From NCBI RefSeq assembly GCF_019186805.1, contig NZ_CP066783.1, positions 2,431,501 to 2,495,500 of the forward strand: 64,000 bases of DNA, read 5' to 3'. Each line of letters starts with the position of its first letter. Within the stretch, counting starts at the first letter, position 1. The notes below the pieces were generated by a model, which did not search any database, was not told where the DNA came from, and was given only the letters and a program-made list of their open reading frames with translations. The stretch is from Comamonas fluminis. GTDB taxonomy: Bacteria > Pseudomonadota > Gammaproteobacteria > Burkholderiales > Burkholderiaceae_C. A program made the position numbers and the translations under genes. Positions 973 to 10,440 of the stretch are shown piece after piece.

Positions 973-1293
973 ATGCCAGTGTTTGCAGCGTTTATTGGTT
1001 CTATCGGCATGGGGGTTTACAACCTCCTGGTGGCCTTGGTCGGCGTCCGTCTTGCTATGCGAGTTGCGGCCGTCATATCGTTGGCAACGATCTACACGGC
1101 CTGCGTGATCTACTTCAGCACCATCATCGTGCCTTGGCTGGAAGCGCTTTTCATGAGCGGCTACGGCCAGCTGCTGGGCCTGCTGTTCCCGCCTATCTCC
1201 GGTACCGTCCTGGCCGGCCTCGGCGCTTACTGGACTTGCGTTGCTGGCGCGCAGTACGTCGGCAACCTGATGAAAATCGCCATAGGGAAATGA
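973..1293 (+). CDS. DUF2523-type minor coat protein (pVI-like)
   Basis: A 106-residue, very hydrophobic protein with about three membrane segments (residues 5-30, 32-55 and 70-95) and a short basic tail. Size, hydrophobicity and position directly between the pIII-like gene and zot match the DUF2523 family, the functional counterpart of pVI in filamentous phages, which works with the adsorption protein at the virion end. ATG at 973 lies 3 bp after the upstream stop, and the stop is 1 bp before the zot start, so the genes are probably translated as a coupled unit. Confidence 0.75.
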   Translation: MPVFAAFIGSIGMGVYNLLVALVGVRLAMRVAAVISLATIYTACVIYFSTIIVPWLEALFMSGYGQLLGLLFPPISGTVLAGLGAYWTCVAGAQYVGNLMKIAIGK

Positions 1294-1294
1294 C

Positions 1295-2164
1295 ATGGCG
1301 GTCTACAGCGTTGAAGGCAAGCTCGGCACGGGCAAAACCAAGTTCGCGGTGTACCAGGCAGAGCAGGCTCTGCTTGCTGGCCGCCGTGTTGCGTCCAATG
1401 TGGATCTGAAGCCAGAGATCCTGAACCCGTGGAAGGCCTGTAGCTACGTGCGCTTGCCTGACAAGCCCACGGCTGAAGACTTTCTGGCAGCGGGCCACGG
1501 AAACCCAGATACCTACGACGAAAGCCGCAATGGTGTGCTGATCCTGGACGAGCTGGGCACCTGGTTGAACTCGCGCTCGTTCCAGGACAAGAGCAGAGCA
1601 GGGGTGATCGACTGGCTGATCCATGCGCGTAAATACGGCTGGGACGTCTTCTTGATCGTCCAGGACGCCACCATGATCGACAAGCAGGTGCGCGAAGCCC
1701 TCATTGAGTACCAGTGCCGCTGCATGAACCTGTCGCGGGTTCGTATCCCGTTCATTGGCAAGCTGCTGGGCTTCATGCACAAGCCATGGGGCTACCTGCC
1801 CAAAATGCACACGGTCACGGCCAGGACGGGTTATGGCCAGAACGCGATCATTGCGGAAAAGTGGCTCTACCGTGGCGACCACCTGCATGCCGCCTATGAC
1901 ACGCGGCAGATCTTCACCAGCGACTATCCGAACGGGCCGCACAGCGTGCTGGTGCCGTGGGAGTTTGAGCGTCGAAAGACCTCTGGCGAGATCTTTCGGG
2001 AAAGGTTGGAAACCTTTCTCGGGAGATTTCGCGCTCCGCCACTGGTCCGGCCTGCGCCGCGGCAACCAGGTCGCGCCATCACGCTGCTGCGCGATGTGGA
2101 CATGGACCCAGACCGCAAGGTGGAGCTGGCCCGCCGCTATTGGCAGGGGCAGGACTGGGCATGA
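1295..2164 (+). CDS. zot: Zot-family assembly ATPase (pI-like)
   Basis: A 289-residue protein with a P-loop near the start (GKLGTGKT, residues 8-15) and a Walker B-like GVLILDEL around residue 83, as in Zonular occludens toxin / phage pI proteins. These are inner-membrane ATPases that drive extrusion of filamentous virions. The N-terminal ATPase domain looks complete. The C-terminus is short, and I do not see the transmembrane helix and periplasmic tail of pI, so this may be a short variant or a truncated form. It follows the DUF2523 gene by 1 bp and overlaps the next ORF by an ATGA junction. Confidence 0.9.
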   Translation: MAVYSVEGKLGTGKTKFAVYQAEQALLAGRRVASNVDLKPEILNPWKACSYVRLPDKPTAEDFLAAGHGNPDTYDESRNGVLILDELGTWLNSRSFQDKSRAGVIDWLIHARKYGWDVFLIVQDATMIDKQVREALIEYQCRCMNLSRVRIPFIGKLLGFMHKPWGYLPKMHTVTARTGYGQNAIIAEKWLYRGDHLHAAYDTRQIFTSDYPNGPHSVLVPWEFERRKTSGEIFRERLETFLGRFRAPPLVRPAPRQPGRAITLLRDVDMDPDRKVELARRYWQGQDWA

Positions 2165-2451
2165 AGTCGCTCGCGATGGTGCTGGCCGTGTGGGTCGTTC
2201 TTGGCCTGGTGCAACTGGCGCAAGCTGAGCTGCCCGCTGGGTGCGTGAAAACCGCCAAGGCCTGCGACTGCTACAGCTCGCGGGGCAAGCGTGTCGAAGT
2301 CGCTCGCGATACGTGCCAGGTGGCGATGACTCCGGTGCCAGTCCCGCTAGCCGGTGGTGACCTGGACGCCATGTCTGTCAAGACCAAGCCGCAAGAGCCG
2401 GAGCGCTCGCCGTATGTCAAAGCGCCCATTCCCTGGCTGATTGAGCGATGA
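2161..2451 (+). CDS. small secreted protein of the filamentous phage operon
   Basis: A 96-residue ORF starting at the ATG of an ATGA overlap with the zot stop. Residues 1-23 form a clear Sec signal peptide ending in AQA. The mature part has four cysteines in a short segment (CVKTAKACDCYS, then CQVA), suggesting disulfides in the periplasm, followed by a Pro-rich tail. Genes directly after zot often encode small accessory assembly factors in inoviruses of this group, but I do not recognise the family. The coding case rests on tight coupling, the signal peptide and phage context. Confidence 0.6.
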   Translation: MKSLAMVLAVWVVLGLVQLAQAELPAGCVKTAKACDCYSSRGKRVEVARDTCQVAMTPVPVPLAGGDLDAMSVKTKPQEPERSPYVKAPIPWLIER

Positions 2452-2479
2452 GCTAGACTCCCGCCGACTGGAGGGGGCA

Positions 2480-2707
2480 ATGGCGATCGACACGCGGGAC
2501 TACTACAAAGACAAGCACAACCAGGCAGCGGGCTACATGGAAGGCTCGCCGCTTCGTCAAAGCATGGGCGAGGTCAAGGCTGGCCGACGTGCCCGCATTC
2601 GTGCCCGCCGCGACCAAGAAAACCGCAATGGCCTGCTGAGCTTCCTGCTGAAAATGGCCATTTTCATTGGCGCGGTCGTGTTCCTGGTCAAGTTCCTGAA
2701 GGCCTGA
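2480..2707 (+). CDS. small C-tail membrane protein, inovirus-associated
   Basis: ATG at 2480 is chosen because a strong ribosome site (GGAGGGGG) lies just before it; a longer reading from a TTG at 2441 has no such site. The 75-residue product has a highly basic centre (RRARIRARRDQ) and one C-terminal transmembrane helix (LLSFLLKMAIFIGAVVFLVKF). The family is not recognised. It is the last gene of the phage operon, and the hairpin-repeat region begins immediately after it. Confidence 0.5.
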   Translation: MAIDTRDYYKDKHNQAAGYMEGSPLRQSMGEVKAGRRARIRARRDQENRNGLLSFLLKMAIFIGAVVFLVKFLKA

Positions 2708-2729
2708 TGAGGCACTGAGTGAAGCCAGA

Positions 2730-2769
2730 GGATTTGGCCGGGGAAATCGCAGATTTTCTCGGGCAAACC
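2730..2769 (+). repeat. hairpin repeat copy 1 of 5
   Basis: Runs from GGATTTGG to the AAACC end. The outer stem pairs TTTGGCCG with CGGGCAAA (one mismatch). The inner stem pairs GGGGAAATC with GATTTTCTC (two G-U pairs) around a GCA loop. All five copies share GAGGATTT at the left end and AAACCGCA at the right end. Confidence 0.75.
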
Positions 2770-2852
2770 GCAGGGCGTAGCGCTGTTGGCGAGGGGCGAC
2801 TCCGTGCATGGCGCAGTGCAGCGGAAAAGTCACGAAAGTGTATAAAAACGCA

Positions 2853-2889
2853 TGTAATATTTACTACATATTATGTAGCATACATTACA
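2853..2889. promoter_or_regulatory. 37-bp nested palindrome
   Basis: Arms are perfectly symmetric about T2871: CTACATA/TATGTAG inner arms, five-base spacers, then TGTAAT/ATTACA outer arms. It is AT-rich inside GC-rich DNA and next to TATAAA- and TAATAT-like hexamers. It could be an operator for a phage regulator, part of a replication origin, or a diverged XerCD site (it contains ATTATGT, as dif does), but the dif match is weak. Confidence 0.45.
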
Positions 2890-2938
2890 AGACTGGCGCG
2901 GGGTTGAGTGGATTTTGCCACAGGTGAAAAAGGCTTGA

Positions 2939-2978
2939 GGATTTCGTCGGGGAAATCGCAGATTTTCACGATGAAACC
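2939..2978 (+). repeat. hairpin repeat copy 2 of 5
   Basis: The outer stem pairs TTTCGTCG with CGATGAAA (one G-U). The inner stem pairs GGGGAAATC with GATTTTCAC around a GCA loop. The inner stem equals copy 1 while the outer stem equals copy 5, so the two stems vary independently. Confidence 0.75.
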
Positions 2979-3051
2979 GCAGGGCCGCGCCTTGCACAGG
3001 CATGGTCTTGGCTGGGATTTCAGAGCGATAGCTGGGTGTCTGGAGGCTTGA

Positions 3052-3091
3052 GGATTTTGCCGGGGAGGTCGCAGACCTTCTCGGTGAAACC
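3052..3091 (+). repeat. hairpin repeat copy 3 of 5
   Basis: The outer stem pairs TTTTGCCG with CGGTGAAA. The inner stem pairs GGGGAGGTC with GACCTTCTC, a double compensatory change relative to copies 1 and 2 (AA/TT to GG/CC). The GCA loop is kept. Confidence 0.75.
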
Positions 3092-3173
3092 GCAGGGCCG
3101 GTGCCTGATAAGGCGCGGTCTTGGAGGTGCACTGCCGGGAGGCGGTAGCACCTGGTTGTCAGCGGTCATGGGA

Positions 3174-3215
3174 GGATTTCGCTGGGGAGACTGGAACAGT
3201 CTTCGCAGTGAAACC
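3174..3215 (+). repeat. hairpin repeat copy 4 of 5
   Basis: The outer stem pairs TTTCGCTG with CAGTGAAA. The inner stem pairs GGAGACTG with CAGTCTTC around a GAA loop. The CTG/CAG end of the outer stem is compensatory to TCG/CGA in copies 2 and 5. Confidence 0.75.
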
Positions 3216-3573
3216 GCAGCATGAAAGCAGGGCGATCAGCAAAAACATGGGAATGGGTCTGGGCTTGGCCCAGCTCTGAACGGATTTTGGAAACAGGCAC
3301 ACATGCGCGCATGCCTTGTTTGGGTGATTGCCGCATGCAGTTCGCCTCTTGTCGCGCAACATTCCCGGTGCCATGAGAGTCGTGGCCACCAGCGCGCCGG
3401 AGTTTGACCAGGTCGAGCCACATTTCCAGCAGCATGCCGCGTCCCGCAGCTCGCGCACAGCGCAGCACACATTCGGAGGGCGCAGCACCAGCTCGTGCAG
3501 AGCGTCACCCACTCGCTTGATAAACACGGCTGTTTGCGCGCAAGCGCTCCTGGAGCTGGCAGCGAAGAGTAGA

Positions 3574-3615
3574 GGATTTCGTCGGGGAGACTGGAACAGT
3601 CTTCACGATGAAACC
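3574..3615 (+). repeat. hairpin repeat copy 5 of 5
   Basis: The outer stem is as in copy 2 (TTTCGTCG/CGATGAAA), and the inner stem as in copy 4 (GGAGACTG/CAGTCTTC, GAA loop). It is separated from copy 4 by about 360 bp in which I see no gene. Confidence 0.75.
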
Positions 3616-3755
3616 GCATACCGCAGCGAGACCCTGCCGACAAGCATCGTCACGTACACCCCACGATGCACATGGCCGAAGGCCACAGGATCAAGGCTGT
3701 CCGCACCCGTATCCGGCTGTTTAGCGAAGGTGGCGCAAGCATGGTTCAGAAGTTG

Positions 3756-4112
3756 TTAGCCGATTTTGAAAACCGGCAGATTGGCTGGGCCAGAGTTCGA
3801 CCTGGTCAACTCATCTTCAAGGCGTGCGATGTAATCCAGTAGCCGCTTGTTCTTGCGCTCCAGGGCTTGCGCCTGGGCGAAGTATGTCGAGGTGCGCAGA
3901 CCTGATATTGACTCAATGTACTGAATGCCCCAGGTGGATTCCCAGAACAGCGCCAGATGGATCGCTCTGGGTGCCTGGCCGCGTGCGCGGTACTTGCGCA
4001 GCGTTGAGGGGGATATGTCAAGCAGCTTTGCCTTTTGCTCAATGCTGCCTGGCACGTTGTCAAGGACGTAGGAGAAGTGAGGGAGATGTGCGGGGTATGG
4101 TGCTCGAAACAT
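3756..4112 (-). CDS. phage-type helix-turn-helix protein
   Basis: A 118-residue protein read from ATG at 4112; an upstream TTG at 4130 is possible, and neither has a good ribosome site. Residues about 15-45 contain an HTH-like stretch (KAKLLDISPSTLRKYRARGQAP), followed by a conserved-looking WGIQYI segment and a C-terminal coiled coil (ALERKNKRLLDYIARLEDEL). It resembles small DNA-binding proteins found beside filamentous prophages of Xanthomonas and Ralstonia, so a regulator is likely. It lies opposite to the phage operon with an inverted repeat upstream. Confidence 0.55.
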   Translation of the reverse strand: MFRAPYPAHLPHFSYVLDNVPGSIEQKAKLLDISPSTLRKYRARGQAPRAIHLALFWESTWGIQYIESISGLRTSTYFAQAQALERKNKRLLDYIARLEDELTRSNSGPANLPVFKIG

Positions 4113-4195
4113 CACACGACGTTCGAGCAATCGTTATGCAAACTGGAACGATTGCAGGCTGAACAGCTTTTTCTTCAAACGAGCGATTAAACATA

Positions 4196-4210
4196 AGATA
4201 CATCGTATCT
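4196..4210. promoter_or_regulatory. inverted repeat upstream of the HTH gene
   Basis: A perfect AGATAC-ATC-GTATCT inverted repeat lies about 85 bp upstream of the HTH gene start in an AT-rich stretch. Position and symmetry fit an operator for that regulator, but binding is inferred. Confidence 0.35.
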
Positions 4211-4317
4211 AGTTAAACCTTAGGTCAGATCGAAGCCAGAACTGGCCACCAAAGCTGCAATTCCAAGCCTCCTCCGGGCCTGCCGAGCGATCAGCACAAC
4301 AGCCATGGCAAATGAGG

Positions 4318-5641
4318 GTGTGCAGAATTTTGTGTAAACGGACAATCCACCGCCGGCGCAAGCCGGCCTATCCGTAAGCACAATGAGCACCAAGAAACAC
4401 GACGTACCCGAAGAACTGCTGTCTGGCCTGCTGGCCAACTACAAGAAACCCGAAGACCTCATCGGCGAGAACGGCCTGCTCAAACAGTTGACCAAGCTGC
4501 TGGTGGAGCGAGCCCTGGACGCCGAACTGACCGAGCATCTGGGCCACGAACGCAACGAAGCGGTAGCCAACACCACTGGCAACACCCGCAATGGCAAGAG
4601 CAAGAAGACCCTCAAGGGCGATTTCGGCGAGTTGCCCATCGAGGTGCCACGTGACCGCCATGGCAGCTTCGAGCCCCAACTCATCCCCAAGCACCAGACC
4701 CGCTGGGCCGGCTTCGACGACAAAATCATCTCGCTGTACGCCCGCGGCATGACGGTGCGCGAGATACAGGCCCACCTAGAGGAGATGTACGGCACCGAGG
4801 TCTCGCCCAGCCTGATTTCCTCGGTGACCGACGCCGTGGCCGATGAGGTCAAGACCTGGCAAGCCCGCCCGCTCGATGCAATCTACCCCATCGTCTATCT
4901 GGACTGCATCCATGTGAAGGTGCGCGAGGGCGCTGTGCGGGTCAAGGCGGTGTACCTGGCCATCGGCATCACCATGACGGGCGAGAAGGAGGTGCTGGGC
5001 CTGTGGCTGGCGCAGACCGAGGGGGCCAAATTCTGGCTGCAGGTCGTGACCGAGCTGCGCAACCGGGGCGTGCATGACATCTTCATCGCCTGCGTCGATG
5101 GCCTCAAGGGCTTCCCTGAAGCCATTGAGGCCGTGTTTCCCAGGACAGTGGTTCAGTTGTGCATCGTGCACATGGTGCGCCACAGCCTGAACTACGTCTC
5201 GTGGAAGCGTCGCAAAGAAGTGGCCGCAGACCTGAGACGCATCTACACGGCCGCCACCGCCGAGGAGGCCGAGCTGATGCTCGGTGAATTCGAGCAGCGC
5301 TGGGATGCCGAGTACCTGCCCATCGGCCAGTCCTGGCGCAGGAACTGGAGCCGCTTGACCCCGTTCTTTGACTACCCGCCGGAAATCCGCAAGGTCATCT
5401 ACACCACCAATGCCATCGAGTCGGTGAACATGGGCCTGAGGAAGCTGACCAAGAACCGGGGCTCGTTCCCCAGCGACGAGGCGCTGACCAAGCTGTTCTA
5501 CCTGGCCCTGCGCAACATCAGCCAGAAGTGGACCATGCCCATCCGGGATTGGAAGGCTGCGCTGACCCGCTTTACCATTCAGTTCGGAGACCGCATTTCC
5601 ATCAATTGAAGTCCGAACCGTTTACACAAAAATTCGGACAC
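4318..5641 (+). mobile_element. IS256-family insertion sequence (1324 bp)
   Basis: The ends are imperfect 24-bp inverted repeats: 4318-4341 starts GTGTGCAGAA and ends GTGTAAACGG; the complement of 5618-5641 starts GTGTCCGAAT and ends GTGTAAACGG. The element encloses a single full-length transposase. I see no 8-9 bp target duplication in the flanks, which suggests rearrangement after insertion or a deletion next to the element. Confidence 0.85.
4383..5609 (+). CDS. IS256-family transposase
   Basis: A 408-residue DDE transposase of the usual IS256/IS1249-like (Mutator) length. Diagnostic stretches include TRNGKSKKTLKGDFGELPI near residue 68, the first catalytic Asp region VYLDCIHVKV (about 174), IACVDGLKGFPEAI (about 240, second Asp), and YTTNAIESVNMGLRK (about 345, catalytic Glu). 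The frame is intact from ATG at 4383 to the stop 8 bp before the right repeat, so the element is probably active or recently so. Confidence 0.93.
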   Translation: MSTKKHDVPEELLSGLLANYKKPEDLIGENGLLKQLTKLLVERALDAELTEHLGHERNEAVANTTGNTRNGKSKKTLKGDFGELPIEVPRDRHGSFEPQLIPKHQTRWAGFDDKIISLYARGMTVREIQAHLEEMYGTEVSPSLISSVTDAVADEVKTWQARPLDAIYPIVYLDCIHVKVREGAVRVKAVYLAIGITMTGEKEVLGLWLAQTEGAKFWLQVVTELRNRGVHDIFIACVDGLKGFPEAIEAVFPRTVVQLCIVHMVRHSLNYVSWKRRKEVAADLRRIYTAATAEEAELMLGEFEQRWDAEYLPIGQSWRRNWSRLTPFFDYPPEIRKVIYTTNAIESVNMGLRKLTKNRGSFPSDEALTKLFYLALRNISQKWTMPIRDWKAALTRFTIQFGDRISIN

Positions 5642-5645
5642 GCCC

Positions 5646-5696
5646 AATGCCGAGCTGGCCCAGTTGCGACAAGCGGCATCGACACCTTCAGTTTAG
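5646..5696 (+). pseudogene. C-terminal remnant of an interrupted gene
   Basis: Immediately right of the IS an open frame encodes NAELAQLRQAASTPSV and stops at 5694-5696. It reads like the helical C-terminal tail of a longer protein that the IS has separated from its start. No matching N-terminal half is evident to the left of the IS, consistent with the missing target duplication. Low confidence. Confidence 0.25.
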
Positions 5697-5803: not shown

Positions 5804-6772
5804 TCAGCTAAGCAAATCTTGCCACTTTGGTACAACGCCCATGCCTTGCAGCGTCAAGCCCACATGGCGCAGGTCCGGGAAGCCATCCAACAATGCTGTC
5901 AGGCGCTGGCTCCATGATGACCCAGGATTGATGTGCTGCATCAGATGATGGCAGATACACAGCAGTAAAAACGGACGTGCCACCAGCTGCGCCTGCCCCT
6001 GGAAGGGGTCTAAAACGGGTGCAGAGCCCTTCTTGGGCAGCCTGGGTTGGTCTACCACGTTACGGTTCCATAGGCGGCTATGGTGGGCGCATACGTTGCG
6101 CAGGTAGTTCAGGCTGCGCAGCCAGCTGGCAAACACCTGCCCGTTGCCTGCGGGCAGGCCATAGCCCTGTGCGATTTGGTCCTGCTCCTGCGATGGCAAG
6201 CCCGAGAACAGCACAGACATGCTGCCAAAGTCCCAAACCTCGCATGCCACCCATATAGCCAGCGGCTGCCCGTATTTGTTCCGGTAGTGCTCAATGAACT
6301 TCTCACGCGATCGGCGAATCAGGTCATCGTGTTTGCTCAGCCATTCTTGGTGCTGAGTCAGCCCAGAACGCTTCAGCACCTGCGCGAAGTTCGGGTGGAA
6401 ATATGTTGCGTCCTGATAAGCAAATGCGCCCTTCTGCCCCAGCCGGTGAGACAAATCCACGCGCAGCGCGATCTCGATGCGCTCCAGGGCATCCAGAGCC
6501 AGCATGCGCAATCGTTTGTCAAACACATACAGGTCTGCCACATCCTTCAGTCGCGTCCCCGGCTTGAAGTCATCCAATACCTGCCGCTGGCCAGGTCTGC
6601 CACCTTGCGCAGCCTGCCACTGCCGCATGTCATACCAATAGCCTGACAACCGGTAGTACCCAATGCGTTCCAGATAGTCTTGCCCTTTGACAACGTCTGT
6701 AACGATCATGCCGCGCGCCTGCAGCTGGGCCAGTTGATCTGCAACACTAAGCCAAGGCTTTTGATAGCTCAC
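5804..6772 (-). CDS. Abi_2 (AbiD/AbiF-type) HEPN-domain abortive infection protein
   Basis: GTG at 6772 is preferred: a GGGAGG ribosome site lies 6 nt upstream, slightly too close to the alternative TTG at 6775. The 322-residue product starts with the typical KPWLSVADQLAQLQARGM motif and ERIGYYRLSGYW (about residues 37-48). Two RX4H HEPN-type motifs are visible, RVDLSH around residue 108 and RNVCAH around 250, the latter in the family signature LRNVCAHHSRLWNR. The family is a set of abortive-infection RNases related to the HEPN domains of Cas13. It is the last gene of a minus-strand defence cluster, 64 bp after a GmrSD-like gene, and may act on its own. Possible partner: the candidate RNA just beyond its stop. 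Confidence 0.88.
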   Translation of the reverse strand: MSYQKPWLSVADQLAQLQARGMIVTDVVKGQDYLERIGYYRLSGYWYDMRQWQAAQGGRPGQRQVLDDFKPGTRLKDVADLYVFDKRLRMLALDALERIEIALRVDLSHRLGQKGAFAYQDATYFHPNFAQVLKRSGLTQHQEWLSKHDDLIRRSREKFIEHYRNKYGQPLAIWVACEVWDFGSMSVLFSGLPSQEQDQIAQGYGLPAGNGQVFASWLRSLNYLRNVCAHHSRLWNRNVVDQPRLPKKGSAPVLDPFQGQAQLVARPFLLLCICHHLMQHINPGSSWSQRLTALLDGFPDLRHVGLTLQGMGVVPKWQDLLS

Positions 6773-6836
6773 CAAAAGCCTCCCTGCATCGACGATAGCA
6801 ACGTCCGACCTAAATCCAGGAAAAGGGGCATTTCAC

Positions 6837-8900
6837 TCACTCCACTGCCTCAACCGGCGCTGGAGCGCCGTTAATCAAGCCGTCAGCCGCAAAGGCAGCC
6901 TCCAACAGCCCGAGCATTTCCCGCTGATGTCTAAGCATGGCTCCGCCTGATGCCCACGCACTTTCAACCGAGAACGCCGAGTACATCGCCAAGGTCTTCA
7001 GGCTCTGACTCTGCTTTTCGCTCACCAGTTGCTTGAACTTGTCCTCCGGCCCTGAGTTGCCAAGGCGGGAGTTCATCGTATGACTGACCAGGCACAGATT
7101 ACCTAGAGCATGCAGATGGTCGTCATCCCACGAATTGCCCGTAAACAGCTCCGTCTGTGGGTGCAGGTGCTCCACTGAGCGGCGAGTGCTGGTGAAAGCA
7201 AAATCGCGCCACTCCTGCGCTCCCGGCTTGTCCTCATGCCTGGCCTGCAGCCAGAGCAAATAGTCCAGGAAATTGAAGTCCACCAGCCTAGCCCGCCCAT
7301 ACGTCAACTTGCTTGGCAGCGCCCTTACCAGTTCACTGTCCGGTCGATGGGGTTTAAAGAACTGTGTTGAACGGCGCACCAGTGCCTCATATGTCACTGG
7401 CTCAGGCCCGCCAGCGCCCTCCTCCAGCACAAAGGCCTTGGCCAACCCTTCCAGCGCCAGCAAAAACGCTGCGCCATCAATGGCTGTCTCAGCATCCTGC
7501 TGGTACAACCAGCGCAACACCCCTTGCAACCAGTGCTTACGCGTGGGCAGCATGTACGACACATGCAGCGCAGCCTGCAGCATTCGCAAGCGCTCTGCCC
7601 AGTCCTGGCCAGCATCATCAAAGGCGTTGACCCACAGCAACACGGCCTTGTCATTTCTGAACTTGCAGCGCTGCAATTGCCAGTGCTCCTCATCGCCTTG
7701 GCTGTCAACGCTGCTCTTAATCACATGCTGGTCCAGCAGAAACCGGCAGCGCAGCAACCTGAAGCCGAATTCCAGAATCTGATCCGCACCGCCACGCAGC
7801 AATGGCTCAAATGCCGTCAGCAAGTGTTTGTCGTCCAGCGGTGTGCTCTCAAATGCCTCACCCGGCATCATGGCCAGCACCTGCAGCAAGAAGTTGGGGA
7901 AGTTAATCACCGAGCCAAACTGGGCCTTGCTTTCCTCGTCCTCCTCATCGTCCCCTACCTGCGTGGCTACCAACTGCCCGCCAGCAATGCGAGGCCGGTC
8001 AGCAATCAGTTGCATCAATGATTTGGGCGCGGCTGTCGTCTCGTCAAGGCCACCAAAACACGCCACCAACTGCTGCGCATTTTTCACCAGCAGCAACCTG
8101 CCATCTGCAGCAAATATGCGCTTGCGCAAATCTGGCACGAACCCGGACTGCACCGACCTGTCCATCACAGCACAGGCATCCCACACCGTATGCAGCACCT
8201 TCATGGCCGCGTGCTCACCATGCTGCTGCAGCGCTCCCAGCAAACGAGCCTTCAGCACCTCGTGCTTAGCCAATTGCTCGCCGCGGTTGTTCATCACCTC
8301 GAAGTAGTGATTCAGGTCCGTTCGCGCGGGCAAATCCACCCGCAGCAGTTGAACGCGCTCCAGCAGGAAATGGGCAAACACCTTTCGGTGCGCTTCCGGC
8401 AACTCACGCAATAGACCCTCAATAATGGCTCGCCCTTCCCAGATGCTGCTTGCTCCGCTGGCATCGTCACCATCTGGTTTGTCCTTGGCCTGTGCTGCCG
8501 CCTGCAAAGGCTGCGCAAACACCGTCTTCAGCGCCTGACTCGAAGCCTCGCGGCACTCAAACTGCAAAGGCATGCGCGCCATCGCGCCTTCCAGCTCAGG
8601 GTACATGGCACGCAGCACTGACACCAGCAGGCTCAGCGTCGTCAGCCGCTGCTGGCCGTCCACCACCTCCCAGTGCTGATGCTGCTCGGTACGCCGCGCG
8701 TACACCACCAGAGTGCCGATGTAGTAGTCATGCACCAAATTCTGTGCATTGCGCTGGGCATAGTCGTTCACGTCGGCAATCAATTGACCGATCTCTCTCG
8801 CCCCCCAAGCATAGTTGCGCTGATACACAGGGATGGAATACAGCCCATCTGCCAGCACCTGCTGCACGGTCAGCAGTTGGGGCTCATGCTTGTTGTTCAT
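6837..8900 (-). CDS. DUF262-DUF1524 (GmrSD-like) restriction protein
   Basis: A 687-residue protein. The N-terminal DUF262 domain shows IPVYQRNYAWG (residues 23-33) and EVVDGQQRLTTLSLLV (about 78-93), a ParB/Srx-like fold thought to use nucleotides. The C-terminal part has the DUF1524 HNH-like signature SVEHLHPQT followed by LGNLCLVSHTMNSRLGN (about 575-625). The family includes GmrSD (type IV restriction of glucosylated hydroxymethylcytosine DNA), SspE and BrxU, all phage-defence nucleases that sense modified DNA. The ATG at 8900 overlaps the stop of the upstream DUF262 gene by 17 bp, indicating translational coupling and probably a joint function. Confidence 0.85.
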   Translation of the reverse strand: MNNKHEPQLLTVQQVLADGLYSIPVYQRNYAWGAREIGQLIADVNDYAQRNAQNLVHDYYIGTLVVYARRTEQHQHWEVVDGQQRLTTLSLLVSVLRAMYPELEGAMARMPLQFECREASSQALKTVFAQPLQAAAQAKDKPDGDDASGASSIWEGRAIIEGLLRELPEAHRKVFAHFLLERVQLLRVDLPARTDLNHYFEVMNNRGEQLAKHEVLKARLLGALQQHGEHAAMKVLHTVWDACAVMDRSVQSGFVPDLRKRIFAADGRLLLVKNAQQLVACFGGLDETTAAPKSLMQLIADRPRIAGGQLVATQVGDDEEDEESKAQFGSVINFPNFLLQVLAMMPGEAFESTPLDDKHLLTAFEPLLRGGADQILEFGFRLLRCRFLLDQHVIKSSVDSQGDEEHWQLQRCKFRNDKAVLLWVNAFDDAGQDWAERLRMLQAALHVSYMLPTRKHWLQGVLRWLYQQDAETAIDGAAFLLALEGLAKAFVLEEGAGGPEPVTYEALVRRSTQFFKPHRPDSELVRALPSKLTYGRARLVDFNFLDYLLWLQARHEDKPGAQEWRDFAFTSTRRSVEHLHPQTELFTGNSWDDDHLHALGNLCLVSHTMNSRLGNSGPEDKFKQLVSEKQSQSLKTLAMYSAFSVESAWASGGAMLRHQREMLGLLEAAFAADGLINGAPAPVEAVE

Positions 8901-10440
8901 GCTCTTCCTTCAGTGCACCTTGCCGCCAGTAGCCCAGCTTTTCCATCCAACCCTGCAACGCATCCAAGCCTTGTGATGGCGGCGTGCCGCGCTCGTAAAA
9001 GGCAGTGGGCAGCGAGATATTCAGGAACTCCTGCGGCGTGATTGCATCGCGCAGCACGGCAAACGGGTTGACCCCGCCCTCACTGGCAAATTTGTCCATG
9101 CTGCCCACCATCACCCGACGGTTGAGCAAGCGCGCATAAGCCCAGGCAAATGACAGCTCCACCGCCTGCGACAGCCCCTGCTCACCAAATTTGTCCACGT
9201 AGTACATCAGCAGCGCATCAAACACGGCGCGCACATGCGAGTCACCCTTGCGGTCACGCCCTGCATAGCGCCCCAGCGTCTCCAAGATGCCACGCGCGTC
9301 TTCAGCCAGTGCGTGCTCAAATTTTTGGGCCCAGGGAGGCAGCTTCCCCACTTCCTGCTTGTGATGAAAGCCCATGCTCCAGTAATGCTGCACCCAGTCA
9401 AAAAAGCGCAAGCCGTTGACCACAGGTGCATCAAGCTGACAGGGCCACACCTGCCCGCGCGTACCCGTATGGCTCTCCAGCAAATGCACCGCATCGTCCA
9501 GCATGCGCCACGCACGGCTCATGGGCGCGGCCGCACGGCTCTCCAGACTGATGCCTTTGAACACGCCCACATGCCGCTTGCCAAAATACTCGGCATCACG
9601 CCCACGGCTGCGCTGGCGGGTTTGAAACAGAAAACGAGCAAACAAGCGCTCTAGGTCGGGTTGCGAGCATCGCTCCCAAGCCTGCACGGCTTGCCCCTGT
9701 AACGCCAGCTCTGCCGGGCGCAACGCCCGCAGGTGAAAGGCCTTGAGCAAGTCATGCACGCACAACGGTTTGCCACGGCCGTTCTGTGCATCAAAAAACT
9801 GAAATGCCTCGGTCAGACTGTGCAACTGCACGCGCACCACCTCGCAGCGCTCCAGCAAAAACTCCACTTGCGCCTGCCCCCACTGCGCTTGCCGAATATG
9901 GCGTGCAATGGCCTGGTAGTTGGCCTGTACCTGCTGGTGCGACAAGGGACTGGGAAATTGCGGCTCAAACAGTTCCAGCGCTAATAACTCACGCTGCCAG
10001 GCTGGCTGCTGCTCTTCGGCAACTTCCCGGGCCGCAGCGCGCAAGGCATGCAGCACCAGCAGCAAAGTCACGGTGCGCTGCTGGCCGTCCACAATATGGT
10101 GCGATCTGCGCGCTGGCATGCCGCTTTGACCAGGCAGATCGACCGCCGACTCCACATGCACCACCACCGTGCCCATGCGGTAGCTGCTGGCCCCTTGCTC
10201 CTGTGCAGTGGCTTGGGTTTGCAACTCAATATCGCGCAGCAACTGCTGCACTTGCGGCAAGCCCCATTTGTAGGGACGCTGGTAGTCGGGAATGTTCAGT
10301 GCCTGGTCGCCAAGCCAGTCCTTGAGTTTGCAAATCTCAGCGCAAGCCTGCTGGGCCGAGATATGTGACAACTGAGCTTTCTCTGCTTCTGGTTCAGACA
10401 CATGTGCCTGCGAAACCGCCCTCTCGTTCATAAGCCCCAT
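8884..10440 (-). CDS. DUF262-only partner protein
   Basis: A 518-residue protein with the DUF262 motifs IPDYQRPYKW (about residues 49-58) and HHIVDGQQRTVTLLLVL (about 114-130). Its C-terminal half lacks the HxxP/HNH signature of DUF1524 and has no recognised nuclease motif. It sits directly upstream of, and overlaps, a second DUF262 protein that does carry DUF1524. One reading is a sensor or regulatory subunit paired with an effector; another is a diverged GmrS whose nuclease part was lost. It starts at ATG 10440 with a purine-rich upstream tract; a second ATG lies three codons on. Confidence 0.8.
   Translation of the reverse strand: MGLMNERAVSQAHVSEPEAEKAQLSHISAQQACAEICKLKDWLGDQALNIPDYQRPYKWGLPQVQQLLRDIELQTQATAQEQGASSYRMGTVVVHVESAVDLPGQSGMPARRSHHIVDGQQRTVTLLLVLHALRAAAREVAEEQQPAWQRELLALELFEPQFPSPLSHQQVQANYQAIARHIRQAQWGQAQVEFLLERCEVVRVQLHSLTEAFQFFDAQNGRGKPLCVHDLLKAFHLRALRPAELALQGQAVQAWERCSQPDLERLFARFLFQTRQRSRGRDAEYFGKRHVGVFKGISLESRAAAPMSRAWRMLDDAVHLLESHTGTRGQVWPCQLDAPVVNGLRFFDWVQHYWSMGFHHKQEVGKLPPWAQKFEHALAEDARGILETLGRYAGRDRKGDSHVRAVFDALLMYYVDKFGEQGLSQAVELSFAWAYARLLNRRVMVGSMDKFASEGGVNPFAVLRDAITPQEFLNISLPTAFYERGTPPSQGLDALQGWMEKLGYWRQGALKEEHEQQA

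What the first reader, a model, noticed from the sequence alone, without database searches (positions are those of the whole stretch)
2730..3615. Five copies of a hairpin with compensatory base changes after the filamentous prophage genes
Seen directly: at 2730, 2939, 3052, 3174 and 3574 a unit of about 40 nt recurs on the same strand, with fixed ends (GAGGATTT and AAACCGCA) and variable arms. The arms change in pairs: inner stem AAATC/GATTT, AGGTC/GACCT, GACTG/CAGTC; outer stem end TCG/CGA, CCG/CGG, CTG/CAG. The two stems are reshuffled independently between copies. Such covariation implies selection for the fold in RNA or single-stranded DNA. No ORF or T-run explains them. Options: inovirus packaging or origin hairpins (ssDNA), a multi-copy ncRNA, or REP-type elements. 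I do not recognise the family.
Basis: partly seen in the sequence, partly recalled or inferred. Interest (0 to 1): 0.8.

Follow-up and report, generated by a model that had tools for sequence, protein, structure and literature searches.

The report
Repeated packaging-type DNA hairpins in inovirus
Five hairpins that keep their shape through matched base changes lie in the kilobase behind the assembly genes of a filamentous prophage, and they are likely repeated packaging signals of its single-stranded DNA, a signal that in the model phages f1 and IKe is one hairpin in the same place.

Summary
Five units of 45-47 nt lie at window 2728-3618, and the searches found no sixth in the genome. Seven related inovirus contigs carry 1-3 copies each. 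Over 22 units, 94.7% of cells pair (0 of 500 shuffles) and 12 of 21 pairs change on both sides (4 of 500). G-T pairs outnumber A-C 47 to 1 on the coding strand, so a single strand is what matters. The 22 apical loops are GNA (21) or GNNA (1), a kind of cap known to be stable in DNA. I found no terminator, promoter, Rfam or dispersed-repeat explanation. A GNA/GNNA-capped hairpin in the same place is the packaging signal of f1 and the annotated morphogenetic signal of IKe. I read the array as a multi-copy packaging-type signal on virion ssDNA (0.48). The main rival is a complementary-strand origin. Reader and function are not shown.

The parts
2723..2777 (+). hairpin copy 1 (core 2728-2772; C(GCA)G loop), 21 nt after the preceding ORF
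2932..2986 (+). hairpin copy 2 (core 2937-2981; C(GCA)G loop)
3045..3099 (+). hairpin copy 3 (core 3050-3094; C(GCA)G loop)
3166..3224 (+). hairpin copy 4 (core 3172-3218; G(GAA)C loop); the copy with a counterpart in all 8 arrays compared (window included)
3567..3623 (+). hairpin copy 5 (core 3572-3618; G(GAA)C loop), beyond the conserved intergenic block
3330..3555 (+). intergenic block between copies 4 and 5, in parts conserved in the alignment with 7 relatives; similar stretches seen by eye in L214, L287, L290; possibly the replication origin region (inferred)
973..1293 (+). ORF of the structural module in the place of gene VI (97% identical in L138; no family match)
1295..2164 (+). Zot/pI assembly ATPase (Pfam Zot 1.7e-23; 45-48% to Ff/IKe gene I over about three quarters of its length)
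2441..2707 (+). last ORF before the array (no family match; hydrophobic stretch near its end, seen by eye)
3756..4130 (-). helix-turn-helix regulator-like ORF of the prophage (MerR/HTH_17, below cut-off)
4190..4203 (+). right copy of the 14-nt direct repeat that probably bounds the prophage (left copy at L006:5590, outside the window); dif-like
   Evidence: dif likeness is recalled

Best explanation
The five copies are hairpins selected as single-strand structures on the coding (predicted virion) strand of a filamentous prophage, likely a multi-copy form of the packaging signal that f1 and IKe carry once in the same place. Shown: the fold, its covariation, the strand bias, the GNA/GNNA loops, the place behind the assembly genes, and strong matches only in prophages of this type in what was searched. 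Inferred: after rolling-circle replication the phage's ssDNA-binding protein would coat the genome and leave hairpins exposed; one or more of the copies would be recognised by the assembly/tip complex and start extrusion. Inferred: the readers need the fixed parts (GA/GCA internal loop, bulged A, GGGGA/TTC, GNA cap) and tolerate any paired arms, so the arms drift in pairs and are swapped between copies. Inferred: extra copies give redundancy, or an advantage when several inoviruses compete for packaging.
For: Fold and covariation: 22 units from 8 inovirus genomes, 94.7% of 399 cells paired and covariation score 0.442 (0/500 shuffles for both), 12 of 21 pairs with changes on both sides (4/500). 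Strand: G-T 47 vs A-C 1 in 19 distinct units; DNA folding -12.5 to -16.5 kcal/mol on the coding strand vs -6.8 to -8.9 on the complement for the five window copies. DNA-type cap: loops are GNA in 21 of 22 units and GNNA in 1. Place: the first hairpin starts 7-35 nt after an upstream ORF in 7 of 10 genomes. Model phages: the hairpin at the gene IV stop of f1, and that of If1, has a C(GCA)G cap; the IKe hairpin annotated 'pot. transcription termination, morphogenetic signal' and that of PEar1 have C(GCNA)G caps. The f1 hairpin is the packaging signal: the published deletion primers in PMC9667628 remove its 5' arm up to the loop (passages; my comparison with the f1 record). In 57 other inovirus contigs GNA:TNC:other is 22:2:35 for triloop hairpins, vs 4:2:65 in 116 other viral contigs (Fisher 6.5e-6; strand binomial 3.6e-5). 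Mode of evolution: between f1 and IKe the minus-origin hairpin is identical (29/29) while the packaging hairpin is at shuffled background (25/56); free, paired arms resemble the packaging case. Confinement: no match outside the array in its own genome at E up to 1 and no strong one in the 398 other family genomes drawn.
Against: Model packaging signals are single; here 1-5 copies. The hairpin family sits beside at least two assembly modules (Ff-like zot in window and L138; another zot type in L019, L096, L100, L109, L133) and beside different Reps (Phage_CRI in the window, REP_ORF2-G2P in L138), so no single phage protein explains the fixed parts. In 3 of 10 genomes the first copy is 107-178 nt from the last long ORF. 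Copy 4, the only one with a counterpart in all 8, is the one next to the conserved block, where an origin could lie. In one search one measure, further pair types, is no higher than in shuffles (200/500). A GNA cap is not specific: the f1/IKe minus-origin hairpin 2 also has C(GTA)G. With stems scored loosely (G-T and A-C both allowed) the GNA excess shrinks to 40:11:187 vs 26:28:435. Two related phages lack the cap: L290 has an unrelated hairpin array in the same slot with other loops, and L289 a TGTA loop. The single divergent copy of L287 folds only weakly (z -1.6, 14 of 200 shuffles as good). No experiment.
Confidence: 0.48

Rival explanations
1. The hairpins are complementary-strand (minus-strand) origins: after infection or rolling-circle replication the host RNA polymerase or primase would recognise the hairpins in the viral strand and lay down a primer. 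Several copies would speed conversion to double-stranded DNA.
For: The same hairpin family accompanies different assembly modules and different Reps, as expected for a host reader. Copy 4 has a counterpart in all 8 genomes beside the conserved block. The f1/IKe minus-origin hairpin 2 also has a C(GTA)G cap.
Against: In f1, IKe and PEar1 that origin hairpin is conserved as sequence (29/29; not in If1 or fs2), whereas here the arms are free and only pairing is kept. No sigma-70-like promoter site by consensus scan. The first copy starts 7-35 nt behind an upstream ORF, the packaging-signal place, in 7 of 10 genomes. No strong copies in the 398 other family genomes drawn, where some might be expected if other ssDNA elements of these hosts used the same host signal.
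Confidence: 0.27
2. RNA-level elements: hairpins in the 3' end of the late transcript that would stabilise the mRNA, bind a regulator or slow transcription.
For: The functional strand is also the mRNA strand. RNA folds are strong. [quoted passage not shown]
Against: No terminator-like and no promoter-like site by consensus scan. No Rfam match even at E up to 1. GNA triloops are described as a stable family in DNA, with the GNRA tetraloop as the RNA counterpart (PMC5815330, passages); the same paper calls the motif portable between polymers, so this is not exclusive.
Confidence: 0.13
3. Selfish or recombination elements: REP/BIME-like repeats, integron-type sites or attachment hairpins that spread inside inovirus intergenic regions without serving the phage.
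For: Variable copy number (1-5) and stem swapping between copies.
Against: Not dispersed: all 5 genomic copies found lie in this array. The probable prophage-bounding repeat is elsewhere. One copy is kept in all 8 genomes compared at the same place.
Confidence: 0.07

Closest known systems
Packaging (morphogenetic) signal of Ff and IKe filamentous phages
   Same: long hairpin on the coding strand, behind the assembly genes, GNA or GNNA cap closed by C-G, an outer stem separated by an internal loop, shape kept while sequence changes
   Different: 1-5 copies instead of one; fixed motifs (GAGGATTT, GGGGA, TTC, AAACCGCA) kept across different assembly modules; G(GAA)C cap in copies 4 and 5; packaging not tested
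Minus-strand origin hairpins of f1/IKe
   Same: ssDNA hairpin in the same intergenic region; hairpin 2 has a C(GTA)G cap
   Different: the known one is conserved as sequence (29/29 between f1 and IKe); here the arms are free; no promoter-like site found
Hairpin array of L290 (IMGVR_UViG_3300011890_000030)
   Same: same slot before a similar conserved block; 3 repeats about 143 nt apart whose third copy keeps pairing through many changes
   Different: unrelated sequence, two hairpins per repeat, no GNA caps
REP/BIME elements (recalled)
   Same: short imperfect palindromes with conserved ends in several copies
   Different: not dispersed in the host genome; found in one prophage type

Membership tests
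Filamentous-phage packaging signal | hairpin acting on the virion (coding) strand | tested here: met
   G-T 47 vs A-C 1 in 19 distinct units; coding strand folds better than complement in 5 of 5 window copies; that the coding strand is the virion strand is inferred from homology
Filamentous-phage packaging signal | lies in the intergenic region directly behind the assembly genes | tested here: met
   first copy 7-35 nt behind an upstream ORF in 7 of 10 genomes, 107-178 nt behind the last long ORF in 3 of 10
Filamentous-phage packaging signal | needed in cis for packaging | not testable with these tools
   needs an experiment
Filamentous-phage packaging signal | recognised by the phage's own tip/assembly proteins | tested here: inconclusive
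   hairpin family is shared across different assembly modules, which speaks against a module-specific reader; binding not tested
Filamentous-phage packaging signal | single copy (as in the model phages; usual, perhaps not defining) | tested here: not met
   1 to 5 copies in 8 genomes
Minus-strand origin (Ff/IKe type) | sequence conserved between phages of related hosts | tested here: not met
   arms vary with compensation; f1 vs IKe origin hairpin 29/29 identical
Minus-strand origin (Ff/IKe type) | primes complementary-strand synthesis by host RNA polymerase | not testable with these tools
   needs an experiment
Intrinsic terminator | T-run after the stem | tested here: not met
   0 terminator-like sites in 2650-4250
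REP/BIME elements | many copies dispersed between genes of the host genome | tested here: not met
   5 copies, all in the array
Rfam RNA families | match to a covariance model | tested here: not met
   none here at gathering threshold or at E up to 1 in 2600-4250

The most novel reading that the evidence does not exclude
Inoviruses use a general 'shape code' for packaging: a long virion-strand hairpin with a GNA cap. One lineage has multiplied it into arrays whose paired arms are swapped and re-armed, so several packaging starts coexist on one genome and can move between phages with different assembly modules, read by a shared or host-encoded factor.
Probability: 0.3. Interest if true: 0.78.

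Novelty: new variant of a known kind. Interest (0 to 1): 0.6.

Why it matters
Packaging signals of filamentous phages are worked out mainly for the E. coli phages (recalled). A structure rule (long coding-strand hairpin, GNA cap, behind the assembly genes) would let them be predicted in many inoviruses, and arrays of covarying copies give natural variants that show which parts are read.

Tried and rejected
Rejected: chance repeat; REP dispersal; terminator or promoter (consensus scan only); Rfam family; attachment-site hairpin (the probable bounding repeat is elsewhere). Weak model matches in other genomes were taken as chance: 5 of 399 genomes in the family search (21-25 bits) and 7 of 399 in the order search (23-28 bits). 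The 13 loci put through (five family loci, seven order loci and L276 of G405) gave no match to the window's zot or rep. This check is weak, because L276, a true array, gave none either (it belongs to the other zot type). Only L279, L281, L282 and L285 were read gene by gene, and they looked like host genes. The genome-collection scan gave 56 stretches with one match each. These and 18 other pattern-hit loci score at most 19.2 bits with the model. The pattern in family genomes hit two others besides the own genome; these two (L127, L128) gave no model match at E up to 0.1. Genome scans with the model score only part of the first-look candidates (150 of 2307; 13 per genome; 99 per genome), so weak copies can be missed. 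Nucleotide comparison of 2700-3660 with phage and plasmid records found nothing. 'GNA = packaging signal only' was tried and dropped, because the minus-origin hairpin has it too. Upstream/downstream-of-zot counts are not used as a main argument, because some contigs may be circular. In one search, L222, L225, L228, L237 and L271 were left out of the 57-contig set as repeats of contigs already held, the eight array genomes were left out too, and L212 and L214 (divergent, array-like) were kept in. The 116 other viral contigs are pattern hits and were not checked for hidden inoviruses. Thresholds 8, 9 and 10 were run: GNA:TNC:other 22:2:35, 14:1:18, 8:1:11 against 4:2:65, 0:1:23, 0:0:12 (Fisher 6.5e-6, 1.2e-4, 0.014). 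One search, with the array family included, gives the same trend and is not used for the test.

Full report
Observation. Behind its last structural/assembly ORFs (973-1293 in the place of gene VI, Zot/pI 1295-2164, two small ORFs to 2707) lie five units of 45-47 nt at 2728, 2937, 3050, 3172 and 3572, all on +. In the whole genome (4.9 Mb) the pattern with both fixed ends occurs five times, all here, and its reversed control never. The covariance model finds the same five and no others at E up to 1 (150 of 2307 first-look candidates were scored).

Structure. Each unit folds into one hairpin: an outer stem just outside the fixed ends, an internal loop GA/GCA, GG-CC, a bulged A, TTT-AAA, four free pairs, a G-C pair, one mismatch, GGA-TTC, four free pairs, and a three- or four-base cap. 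Over 22 units from eight genomes (19 distinct), 94.7% of 399 cells form standard pairs against 81.0% in shuffles and the covariation score is 0.442 against 0.175 (0 of 500 shuffles reach either). Twelve of 21 pairs change on both sides (4 of 500), while the number of further pair types is no higher than in shuffles (22 against 21.1; 200 of 500). The slid versions fall to 53% or less. The shuffles do not remove relatedness. Whole stem-loops seem to have been swapped between copies (copy 5 has copy 2's outer and copy 4's inner stem), so the number of independent events is lower than the cell counts.

Which strand and which polymer. Within the structure G-T pairs outnumber A-C pairs 47 to 1, and the five window copies fold better on the coding strand than on the complement with DNA parameters. 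So a single strand is read, not the duplex. By homology with Ff phages (Zot 45-48% identical to gene I over about three quarters of its length; Rep with the G2P domain Phage_CRI) the coding strand is predicted to be the virion strand; the ICTV profile calls inovirus genomes (+) ssDNA (PMC8491893, passages). The caps are GCA, GTA or GAA in 21 of 22 units and GCCA in one. d(GNA) triloops closed by C-G are described as a stable DNA family (PMC5815330, passages). Copies 4 and 5, and their counterparts, have GAA closed by G-C instead, which that paper finds less stable for d(GCA).

Surroundings. A 14-nt dif-like direct repeat at L006:5590 and window 4190 probably bounds the prophage (the likeness to dif is recalled). 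Behind copy 4 comes an intergenic block that is in parts conserved in the seven relatives; similar stretches were seen by eye in L214, L287 and L290. Beyond the prophage edge are a Mutator-family transposase, an Abi_2 gene and two GmrSD-type genes.

Relatives. Strong matches (66-82 bits) were found in seven viral contigs besides the window: L019, L096, L100 and L109 with 3 copies each, L133 and L138 with 2, L132 with 1 (22 units with the window's 5; these are also the units the model was built from). Of 53 genomes of the genus, the window's own and one other, G405, have strong matches. The 3-kb stretch of G405 around its array is contained letter for letter in L100, so it is the same prophage, not a further one. 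In 399 family genomes (own included) only the own genome has strong matches; five others had 21-25 bits. In 399 genomes of the order seven others had 23-28 bits. The four of these read in detail lay in what looked like host genes. Divergent likenesses: L214 has three (13.7-19.1 bits), L287 one that begins 9 nt after the zot match (15.2 bits; weak fold, z -1.6), and L212 one that the model does not support (8.6 bits, E 1.8) but that has the same plan by folding. L290, whose Rep is 81% identical to the window's (same contig as L208), carries in the same slot an unrelated array of three repeats about 143 nt apart whose third copy keeps its long stem through many paired changes.

Comparison with known signals. 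The first hairpin behind gene IV of f1, and that of If1, has a C(GCA)G cap. The IKe hairpin annotated as 'pot. transcription termination, morphogenetic signal' and that of PEar1 have GCNA caps closed by C-G; fs2 gave no such hairpin in the stretch folded. That the f1 hairpin is the packaging signal follows from PMC9667628 (passages), whose deletion primers remove its 5' arm up to the loop (my comparison with the fetched f1 record). PMC10175506 and PMC10480500 (passages) describe the packaging signal as a hairpin, or supposed to be one, left exposed by pV and recognised by the pVII/pIX tip. The cap is not specific to packaging: the minus-origin hairpin 2 of f1 and IKe has C(GTA)G.

General test of the cap. 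In 57 inovirus contigs outside the eight array genomes, deduplicated triloop hairpins with Watson-Crick stems of score 8 or more have GNA:TNC:other = 22:2:35. In 116 other viral contigs they have 4:2:65 (Fisher 6.5e-6; GNA against its strand mirror TNC, binomial 3.6e-5). At scores 9 and 10 the trend holds with fewer cases. With loose stems it weakens (40:11:187 vs 26:28:435).

Packaging or strand conversion. For packaging: the place (first copy 7-35 nt after an upstream ORF in 7 of 10 genomes, 107-178 nt after the last long ORF in 3 of 10; the starts in L212 and L214 were set by eye) and the way it evolves. Between f1 and IKe the minus-origin hairpin is identical in 29 of 29 positions, while the packaging hairpin matches at 25 of 56, the level of shuffled sequence (mean 25.2, maximum 28; ungapped). 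PEar1, close to IKe, keeps 43 of 56 and 29 of 29; If1 and fs2 keep neither. Free but paired arms fit the packaging case. Against it: the hairpin family goes with two zot types and with different Reps (window plus L100, L109, L132 share Rep; window plus L138 share the assembly module; L138's Rep hits another Pfam family), and copy 4, with a counterpart in all eight, lies next to the conserved block. A host reader, hence a minus-strand origin, remains a serious rival. I put packaging at 0.48, strand conversion at 0.27, RNA function at 0.13 and selfish or recombination elements at 0.07.

Print record. Searches for filamentous phage/inovirus with packaging signal, hairpin, intergenic region or repeat (20 of 38, 3 of 3, 0, 2 of 2, 15 of 18 and 15 of 32 papers were listed) showed no paper, by title and start of abstract, that describes hairpin arrays in inoviruses. 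The library lacks most subscription papers, so this is weak evidence of novelty.

Noticed in passing
L290:7536-7929: A second inovirus has an unrelated array of three repeats about 143 nt apart, each with two hairpins, in the same slot before a similar conserved block; the third copy keeps pairing through many changes.
   Followed up: partly
window 1980-2040 and L138:8504-8564: Inside zot, the covariance model finds a weak likeness (21.2 and 14.9 bits) to the hairpin on the coding strand.
   Followed up: no
window 2846-2890: An A+T-rich palindrome between copies 1 and 2. A part of it also stands before the first copy in L100; its nine-base core was not found in nine other related contigs. Function unknown.
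   Followed up: partly
window 3259-3273: A short hairpin with the stem CTGGGC/GCCCAG just behind copy 4 in six of the eight array genomes, window included (one with a broken pair); its loops differ and are not GNA.
   Followed up: partly
window 4313-5646: Insertion element with a Mutator-family transposase (PF00872, 2.3e-120) and inverted ends just outside the prophage edge.
   Followed up: partly
window 5804-10440: Abi_2 gene and two GmrSD-type genes on the minus strand beside the prophage: a possible defence cluster.
   Followed up: no
L019:1350-1949, L109:1-600: Several related inoviruses carry a serine resolvase gene behind the array, where the window prophage has a small regulator-like ORF.
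   Followed up: partly
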